Origin: an uncultured bacterium
GTDB taxonomy: Bacteria > Cyanobacteriota > Vampirovibrionia > Gastranaerophilales > Gastranaerophilaceae
Direction: 5' to 3'
DNA: 64,000 nucleotides
Assembly: GCA_902792085.1 (NCBI GenBank)
Contig: CADAYE010000001.1
Coordinates: forward strand, 124,001-188,000
The notes beneath the pieces were generated by a model, which saw nothing but the letters and a program-made list of their open reading frames with translations, was not told the DNA's origin and did no database searches. Of the stretch, positions 12,945 to 57,134 are shown piece after piece (positions within the stretch are counted from its first letter, which is position 1; every line of letters starts with the position of its first letter). Made by a program: the position numbers and the translations under genes.

Positions 12945-12980
12945 ATAGAAAGCAGATAGATAAAACTATCTGCTTTCTAT
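12945..12980. terminator. Perfect 15-bp hairpin at the outer end of the tRNA-Ser module
   Basis: ATAGAAAGCAGATAG, six-nt loop, CTATCTGCTTTCTAT. On the minus strand it follows the displaced tRNA-Ser end and is followed by 'tattttg', so it probably is the terminator that once ended tRNA-Ser. Confidence 0.6.
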
Positions 12981-12981
12981 C

Positions 12982-13171
12982 AGGAGGAGGTGGGATTCTG
13001 TCACGGCGCTCGCCTTCGATGTGACTTCGCGTCTTGCTTTTAGTTGCAAGTGTGCAACAAGCAAGACGGCTCCGCACTTGGCTCGCTTGTTCAACCCACA
13101 AAACAGGGGGGGGCTCATCCTCACCTCACTCATTGCAATAAAAAATCACCCTTTCGGGTGGTTTTAAATGG
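12982..13171 (-). mobile_element. 190-bp structured module bounded by tRNA-Ser 3' ends
   Basis: The 17-bp AGGAGGAGGTGGGATTC at 12982-12998 repeats exactly the tRNA-Ser stretch from position 73 to the T-loop (13172-13188). The intervening DNA is GC-rich for this genome. It holds a long hairpin at 13030-13068 (CGTCTTGCTT... AAGCAAGACG with an inner GTTGCA/TGCAAC stem), a partial T-arm copy (TCAACCCA, 13091-13098) and the current tRNA-Ser terminator. Same build as the two modules beside tRNA-Glu, so it is probably a miniature integrated element. Confidence 0.55.
13139..13165 (-). terminator. Rho-independent terminator of tRNA-Ser
   Basis: On the minus strand: CACCC-gaaa-GGGTG followed by ATTTTTT, starting just after the tRNA-Ser 3' end. 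Confidence 0.65.
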
Positions 13172-13258
13172 AGGAGGAGGTGGGATTCGAACCCACGGAA
13201 CGCTTGCACGTTCGACAGTTTTCAAGACTGCTCCGATCAACCGCTCTGGCACTCCTCC
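13172..13258 (-). tRNA. tRNA-Ser(UGA)
   Basis: Minus-strand cloverleaf: acceptor GGAGGAG/CTCCTCC, anticodon stem-loop CAGTC-TTGAAAA-CTG with anticodon TGA, a long variable arm (GAACGTGCAAGCGTTC) typical of Ser, and T-arm GTGGG-TTCGAAT-CCCAC. CCA is not encoded. The base at position 73 reads U, unusual for bacterial tRNA-Ser (G73 expected). A copy of positions ~57-73 lies 190 bp away at 12982. Confidence 0.93.
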
Positions 13259-56743: not shown

Positions 56744-56938
56744 CGGCGGTAACGGGAATTGTCTTGAGTCGCTCGCTATAAACGGCATTACAGGTCACGA
56801 CCCTTGTCGTGCCCTTTCAGCCTCTGCTCGCTCCTCGCTGAACCCTATTGACAAGCCTTTCGGCTTGTACGGGTTCTCAAATCGCAACAATTATATCAGC
56901 CAATAAAAAAGACACGATAAACGTGTCTTTCTCATTGG
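56744..56938 (-). mobile_element. 195-bp tRNA-end module A
   Basis: Starts with CGGCGGTAACGGGAATTG (56744-56761), identical to positions ~56-73 of tRNA-Glu on the minus strand, followed by a structured GC-rich insert. The insert begins TCTTG and has CACGAC-cctt-GTCGTG and ACAAGCC-tttc-GGCTTGT hairpins and CCTCTGCTCG. A second T-arm piece, TGAACCC, lies at 56839-56845; the terminator hairpin at 56908-56930 ends the previous unit. Same layout as module B. Confidence 0.55.
56908..56930 (-). terminator. Terminator hairpin at module B/A junction
   Basis: Minus strand: AAAGACACG-tttat-CGTGTCTTTTTT, directly after the displaced tRNA end of module B. Confidence 0.7.
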
Positions 56939-57134
56939 CGGCGGTAACGGGAATTGTCTTGCAATCCTCGCATGGGACGGCTTCCGTGTCGGCAACCCTG
57001 TCAGCCGACCGCTTGAACATGTTGCCGACAACTTCAGCCTCTGCTCGGATTGCGCTGAACCCGAAAAGGGGCTAAATCCCACTGTTACACGCTAAATAAA
57101 AACGAGAATCCCAAATGGTATTCTCGTTTTTATT
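56939..57134 (-). mobile_element. 196-bp tRNA-end module B
   Basis: Starts with the same 18-bp tRNA-Glu end (56939-56956) plus TCTTG, as in module A. The insert contains a 10-bp inverted repeat TGTCGGCAAC/GTTGCCGACA (56987-57030 region), CCTCTGCTCGG, and TGAACCC at 57056-57062. It ends against the real tRNA-Glu with its own terminator (57096-57132). Confidence 0.55.
57096..57132 (-). terminator. Terminator of tRNA-Glu
   Basis: AAAAACGAGAAT - loop - ATTCTCGTTTTTAT, just after the tRNA 3' end on the minus strand. Confidence 0.8.

What the first reader, a model, noticed from the sequence alone, without database searches (positions are those of the whole stretch)
12945..13258. The same module type at tRNA-Ser
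The 17-bp tRNA-Ser end (AGGAGGAGGTGGGATTC, position 73 into the T-loop) is repeated 190 bp downstream at 12982-12998, followed by a perfect 15-bp hairpin that looks like the tRNA's original terminator. The insert begins TGTC right after the T-loop piece, as at tRNA-Glu, and holds a 10+6-bp stacked hairpin at 13030-13068. The two loci share layout, size and the TGTC junction but little inner sequence, which argues for a common mechanism rather than one duplicated segment. The fragment starts exactly at position 73 in both cases.
Basis: partly seen in the sequence, partly recalled or inferred. Interest (0 to 1): 0.72.

Follow-up and report, generated by a model that had tools for sequence, protein, structure and literature searches.

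The report
Hairpin cassettes inserted in tRNA T-loops
In gut bacteria related to cyanobacteria, small non-coding DNA cassettes have inserted again and again into the T-loop of many different tRNA genes, each bringing a spare copy of that tRNA's 3' end, so the genes keep working; the enzyme that moves them is unknown.

Summary
The genome is a Candidatus Gastranaerophilales MAG. About 14 of its 42 tRNA/tmRNA genes carry, just downstream, a 170-200 bp non-coding module: own tRNA 3' end (T-loop to 73) and terminator; a short, partly inverted copy of that tRNA's T-arm; a conserved ~95-nt hairpin ending CAAGACA; then a second copy of the tRNA 3' end. A covariance model of the hairpin found hits in 48 of 59 relatives. 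Of 119 distinct copies fetched, 75 are followed by the 3' end of the gene just upstream (25 isoacceptors plus tmRNA), the copy starting at position 58 in 52. A relative with an empty tRNA-Ser site shows the insertion brought a new 3' end, CCA and terminator, and that the distal hairpin is the ancestral terminator. At tRNA-Val, related genomes have zero, one and two units. Near-identical hairpins occur at different tRNAs with different arms. Hairpin stems covary with few G-U pairs, pointing to folded DNA. Best reading: cassettes inserted by site-specific recombination at T-loops, probably as folded single strands. The recombinase is unidentified: RAYT, integron integrase, IS110, reverse transcriptase and known tRNA integrases were tested and not supported.

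The parts
13169..13258 (-). tRNA-Ser(TGA); its present 3' end from T-loop to 73, plus an encoded CCA (13169-13171), came with the insertion
   Evidence: empty-site relative L219 has no encoded CCA
13138..13168 (-). terminator carried by the module (CACCCGAAAGGGTG + T-run); same type at this tRNA in L220, L222 and L091
13106..13127 (-). inverted, imperfect copy of the tRNA T-arm and acceptor 3' strand (GAGGTGAGGATGAGCCCC on the tRNA strand)
13089..13099 (-). P1 3' arm, GTGGGTTGAAC, resembling the T-stem 5' strand of the same tRNA
12999..13088 (-). conserved hairpin unit (hp), ending ...GTGACA on the tRNA strand; reads TGTC on the + strand
   Evidence: 41.8 bits; structure
12982..12998 (-). second copy of the tRNA-Ser 3' end (position 57 to 73) = original chromosomal 3' end
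   Evidence: empty site in L219
12945..12980 (-). ancestral tRNA-Ser terminator, 15-bp perfect stem
   Evidence: same terminator directly after tRNA-Ser in L219
57134..57207 (-). tRNA-Glu(CTC), host of two tandem modules
56955..57061 (-). hp of proximal tRNA-Glu module (86.1 bits)
56760..56844 (-). hp of distal tRNA-Glu module (81.9 bits)
56940..56956 (-). middle copy of tRNA-Glu T-loop to 73
56745..56761 (-). distal copy of tRNA-Glu T-loop to 73

Best explanation
These are non-coding integrative cassettes that target the T-loop of tRNA and tmRNA genes. Shown: a cassette reads [tRNA 3' end from about position 58 to 73, terminator, inverted T-arm copy, P1 hairpin whose 3' arm equals the T-stem 5' strand + TTC, ~95-nt hairpin hp, CAAGACA]. 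Inserted between T-loop positions ~57 and 58, it supplies a new 3' end and terminator and pushes the old ones distally, so the tRNA sequence stays intact. Further cassettes stack in tandem. Shown: near-identical hp units sit at different tRNAs with different tRNA-matched arms, so hp has moved between targets. Inferred: the moving form is single-stranded DNA. The inverted copy pairs with the tRNA 3' strand after hp to make a three-way junction (outer stem, P1 arm, hp arm) that mimics the double-stranded T-arm target, much as a folded integron attC mimics a double-stranded core site. A recombinase encoded elsewhere then joins ...AAGAC(A) to position 58. The enzyme is not identified.
For: Site and copies: 75 of 119 distinct hp are followed by at least 9 exact nt of the 3' end of the tRNA/tmRNA just upstream; first matched position 58 in 52 cases; 25 isoacceptors plus tmRNA; hp starts a median 71 nt after the gene. 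Empty site at tRNA-Ser. Zero, one and two units at tRNA-Val in G000, G004 and G002. Cassette order differs at tRNA-Ser: CCA-type terminator proximal in the window, distal in G016. hp 92-97% alike at different tRNAs, identity starting at GTTCGAGCG and ending at CAAGACA. Structure: 486 cells with two-sided changes against 130 in shuffles; G-U is 1.9% of standard pairs against 6.4% in tRNA stems. Inverted copy matches own tRNA better than others, mean 17.9 against 13.1. DNA folding gives the three-way junction in most of the 10 modules tried. Present in 48 of 59 relatives.
Against: No enzyme could be linked to the cassettes: module-rich G012 and G020 hold only two tyrosine recombinases, of XerC/XerD size, and no circular form was seen. 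About a quarter of the fetched hp are not beside a tRNA. The inverted copy is weak or missing in many modules: only 24 of 62 exceed the 95th percentile of mismatched flanks. Low G-U could partly reflect palindromes copied arm to arm during repair rather than selection on folded DNA. The single-strand step is entirely inferred.
Confidence: 0.58

Rival explanations
1. Satellites or scars of ordinary tyrosine-integrase elements: a phage/ICE integrase with a T-loop (class II) attachment site moves these cassettes in trans as double-stranded circles, and hp is an arm-binding region.
For: Position and restoration of the gene are as for tRNA-targeting integrases; identity needed across the 3' T-stem would explain tRNA-matched ends; tyrosine recombinases occur in all 40 genomes checked.
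Against: Of 20 loci fetched around tyrosine recombinases (most of them larger phage/ICE-type integrases), six sit near a tRNA, yet none has an hp. One hp family serves 25 isoacceptors plus tmRNA, whereas known integrases serve one or a few. Module-rich G012 and G020 have no tyrosine recombinase beyond a XerC/XerD-like pair.
Confidence: 0.22
2. HUH (Y1) peel-and-paste transposition, like IS200/IS605 or REP/RAYT: hp is a subterminal end hairpin, GTTC is the target and CAAGAC the right cleavage site.
For: Insertion without target duplication next to a short fixed sequence (GTTC), DNA hairpin at the 3' end, and Y1 proteins in 20 of 40 genomes.
Against: The 180-200 aa RAYT genes inspected are mostly flanked by their own REPs of other sequence, typically starting GTAG. 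Module-rich G002, G009, G015, G021 and G033 lack a Y1 hit. The mechanism does not explain tRNA-matched inverted arms.
Confidence: 0.15
3. The modules are functional structured RNAs made downstream of tRNAs, for example regulators or tRNA-like decoys, kept by selection rather than mobile.
For: Strong conserved structure and tRNA-like 3' end; consistent place downstream of tRNAs.
Against: A terminator precedes each module; G-U pairs are rare; presence differs between close relatives at the same tRNA; copies also lie inside phage and transposon gene clusters; no Rfam match at gathering threshold.
Confidence: 0.05

Closest known systems
Integron gene cassettes and attC sites
   Same: Tandem arrays at one entry point; cassette ends in a long variable DNA hairpin with conserved foot; exact junctions; folded-strand logic
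   Different: No protein cargo in the short form, no IntI (0 of 40 over cut-off), no RYYYAAC/GTTRRRY boxes (0 of 119); entry points are tRNA T-loops; arms match the target
tRNA-targeting integrative elements (phage, ICE, satellites) with tyrosine integrases
   Same: Crossover in the T-loop, gene 3' end restored, old 3' end displaced
   Different: 170-200 bp, non-coding, one hairpin family at 25 isoacceptors plus tmRNA; no hp at the integrase loci examined
REP elements / RAYT
   Same: Short palindromic DNA repeats, many per genome
   Different: RAYTs of this genus mostly have their own GTAG REPs; modules are longer and carry tRNA 3' ends
IS110/IS1111 with bridge RNA (PMC11208160)
   Same: Non-coding element part that matches the target
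   Different: No PF02371 protein in this genome with 23 hp copies, 2 of 18 genomes in all

Membership tests
Integron / attC cassette | Integron integrase IntI in the genome | tested here: not met
   TIGR02249: 0 of 40 genomes over cut-off; the best weak hits coincide with XerC/XerD-like loci
Integron / attC cassette | R'' RYYYAAC and R' GTTRRRY at the hairpin foot | tested here: not met
   0 of 119
Integron / attC cassette | Long imperfect DNA hairpin with variable terminal part, in tandem arrays | tested here: met
REP / RAYT | Same hairpin flanking the RAYT gene | tested here: not met
   RAYT flanks mostly carry other, GTAG-type REPs
IS200/IS605 | Y1 transposase present where copies are | tested here: not met
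   absent at E<=0.001 in several module-rich genomes; relics possible
IS110 / bridge-RNA element | IS110 recombinase present where copies are | tested here: not met
   2 of 18 genomes, not in own genome
Retroelement / group II intron | Reverse transcriptase present where copies are | tested here: not met
   5 of 18 genomes, not in own genome
tRNA-targeting integrative element | Insertion inside the tRNA 3' part that restores the gene | tested here: met
   empty site and junctions
tRNA-targeting integrative element | Encoded or linked tyrosine integrase | tested here: inconclusive
   none in the short cassettes; no hp near 20 fetched tyrosine-recombinase loci
tRNA-targeting integrative element | Circular intermediate | not testable with these tools
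   needs reads or PCR

The most novel reading that the evidence does not exclude
A new class of mobile DNA: a cassette that folds as a single strand into a three-way junction mimicking the double-stranded T-arm of one tRNA, and that can change target between tRNAs by replacing its target-matched arms around a constant recombination hairpin.
Probability: 0.4. Interest if true: 0.9.

Novelty: new variant of a known kind. Interest (0 to 1): 0.78.

Why it matters
tRNA 3' ends are the classic landing sites of mobile DNA, yet each integrase is generally tied to one or a few tRNAs. Here one hairpin family has used most tRNA types and tmRNA of a lineage, in units of under 200 bp without genes. It gives a natural series of targets and matched elements from which the rule of target choice can be read, suggests that folded single-strand recombination may exist outside integrons, and may explain some repeat-broken contig ends in these MAGs. 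The same sites are also used by transposons whose adaptor carries an integrase-like DNA-binding domain.

Tried and rejected
Rfam gave only the two tRNAs. RAYT as mobiliser: rejected, own REPs differ. IS110 and reverse transcriptase: absent from own genome. Integron integrase: none. Short ~180-aa tyrosine recombinases: only 2 of 20 loci have an hp nearby. Classical tRNA integrases: no hp. Scan of viral contigs: two related phages with an hp between genes, not at a tRNA. Phage and plasmid collections: no match. Paper searches on tRNA with attC, tycheposons, bridge RNA and Gastranaerophilales found no description of such elements. Relic of a lost tandem tRNA: rejected by the recurrence across tRNAs. 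Mu/Tn7-like transposons as source of the modules: rejected, they insert into or beside modules with 5-bp duplications, and the hp lacks their ends.

Full report
Setting. The window is G000:C1:124001-188000 of a 1.92 Mb, 39-contig genome. The best named relatives are rumen and gut MAGs of Candidatus Gastranaerophilales, Melainabacteria.

Observation. The 17-bp tRNA-Ser end is repeated 190 bp downstream and followed by a perfect 15-bp stem. tRNA-Glu carries two such units in tandem. Scanning all 41 tRNAs of the genome gave the same layout at Lys-CTT, Gly-TCC, Arg-TCT, Arg-CCT, Arg-ACG, Leu-CAA, Leu-GAG and others; Gln-TTG and tmRNA were added later. At tRNA-Leu-TAA the copy is exact but the insert lacks the conserved hairpin. 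A copy of the tRNA 3' end lies downstream at 9 of 41 tRNAs and upstream at 0 of 41 under one strict rule; one of the nine is due to a neighbouring tRNA.

Shared hairpin. Aligning the inserts revealed a common long imperfect hairpin of 85-107 nt: a variable foot stem, often with a tandem G-A mismatch, then GCGAGC against GCGAGC, GGC or GGG against its partner, and a variable apical stem, followed by CAAGACA. A covariance model (R1; structure set by hand from the fold of one member) gave 23 hits at E below 0.01 in this genome and hits in 48 of 59 relatives. In a phylum sample all 77 positive genomes belonged to the own family; weaker hits occur in other families of the order. The model includes the GTTC before and AAGACA after the hairpin, which favours T-arm contexts, but the upstream gene and the tRNA sequence after the hairpin are not part of it.

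Structure at DNA level. On 94 distinct relatives the structure has 486 two-sided changes against 130 in shuffles, and sliding controls collapse. This alignment was fitted to the model, so the seven-sequence alignment made without the model is the safer test: 32 two-sided changes against 9.5. Only 1.9% of standard pairs are G-U, against 6.4% in tRNA stems from the same loci. I read this as selection on folded DNA; arm-to-arm copying is an alternative.

Target. Of 119 distinct hairpins, 75 are followed directly by the 3' part of the tRNA or tmRNA just upstream, covering 25 isoacceptors plus tmRNA; the copy starts at position 58 in 52 of 75, and the hairpin starts a median 71 nt after the gene. 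The fetched copies were mostly the top-scoring ones.

Direction of the event. At tRNA-Ser the relative L219 (neighbour gene 97% identical) has the tRNA directly followed by the terminator that is distal in the window, without insert and without encoded CCA; in the window the proximal 3' end has CCA and another terminator. So the insertion brought the new 3' end. At tRNA-Val-GAC, G000 has the proximal part with a hairpin remnant, G004 one unit, and G002 two units with different hairpins, separated by a repeated ~94-bp stretch that runs from position 58 through the terminator to CAAGTTCG; both its borders follow the same CAAGTTCG. In G016 the order of cassette types at tRNA-Ser is the reverse of that in the window. 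These are the signs of a cassette array fed at the tRNA T-loop.

Target-matched arms. Between terminator and hairpin lies an inverted copy of the T-arm, often reaching into the acceptor strand, that matches the own tRNA better than others (17.9 against 13.1), typically with GTTCTC in place of GTTCGA. Pairing of the flanks across the hairpin is own-specific on average (10.7 against 7.4) but exceeds the 95th percentile in only 24 of 62. Folding ten modules as DNA gave an outer stem plus two arms in most. Hairpins at different tRNAs are up to 96-97% alike while the flanks are largely unrelated; the shared part begins at GTTCGAGCG and ends at CAAGACA.

Mechanism. The data show insertion at the T-loop with restoration, stacking, and movement between tRNAs. 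That the substrate is a folded single strand is inferred from the DNA-type covariation, the inverted copy and the analogy with attC (for attC see PMC3053210, abstract only). The enzyme is open. RAYT, integron integrase, IS110, reverse transcriptase and classical tRNA integrases were tested and are not supported. XerC/XerD-like proteins are present throughout but have no specific link.

A second system at the same place. A Mu/Tn7-like transposon (MuA/TnsB-like, TniB/TnsC-like, a 167-186 aa adaptor and a small HTH protein) lies directly downstream of a tRNA or tmRNA in most loci of its closest clade. In three loci examined it is inserted in or beside a module, with 5-bp duplications in two of them. 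Its adaptor has a constant start and a variable integrase core-binding domain without a catalytic domain. The nearest known case is TnsF (PMC10293859), which keeps part of a catalytic domain and targets comM. This deserves its own study.

Limits. All genomes are MAGs or species representatives without names, many hits lie at contig ends, no reads were available, and gene-content correlation could not be done at genome scale. 'About 14 of 42' counts complete, interrupted and remnant modules together, including tRNA-Val, tRNA-Tyr and the divergent one at tRNA-Leu-TAA.

Noticed in passing
G000:C1:113740-115431 (L336, L407), G000:C12:2130-3833 (L385), L379-L408: Mu/Tn7-like transposons directly downstream of tRNA/tmRNA genes in most loci of the closest clade (many different targets); adaptor protein with constant N-terminus and variable tyrosine-integrase core-binding domain lacking the catalytic part, a candidate T-arm target selector comparable to TnsF.
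   Followed up: partly
L214 (G000:C22, RAYT) about 1325-1356, 2209-2240, 2448-2479: Three copies of the tRNA-Ala 3' end (TGGAGGATAGGGGACTCG) without a tRNA gene, around a RAYT and an hp copy.
   Followed up: no
L210-L218: RAYT genes, mostly with classical GTAG-type REPs (GTAGGGTAGACTTTAGTCTACC, GTAGGTTGGGCATACTTGCCCAAC) in these Gastranaerophilales.
   Followed up: partly
L076 (G000:C7:9286 and 10012), L377, L378 (IMG/VR): Shorter relatives of the hairpin lie in or between genes of a Mu-like element and of tailed phages, not at tRNAs.
   Followed up: partly
L158, L168, L114, L115, L175: The hairpin also sits at the apex of other palindromic repeats (CCCTCGCCC...GGGCGGGTGAGGG; CATTGCGAG...GCAATC), again with an inverted flank.
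   Followed up: no
L299-L318: Most genomes hold single-domain tyrosine recombinases of about 180 aa, mostly away from tRNAs; possibly inversion enzymes.
   Followed up: partly
L029 (G000:C1, downstream of tRNA-Arg-TCT): 11 bases read N inside the hairpin foot, so this copy cannot be read fully.
   Followed up: no
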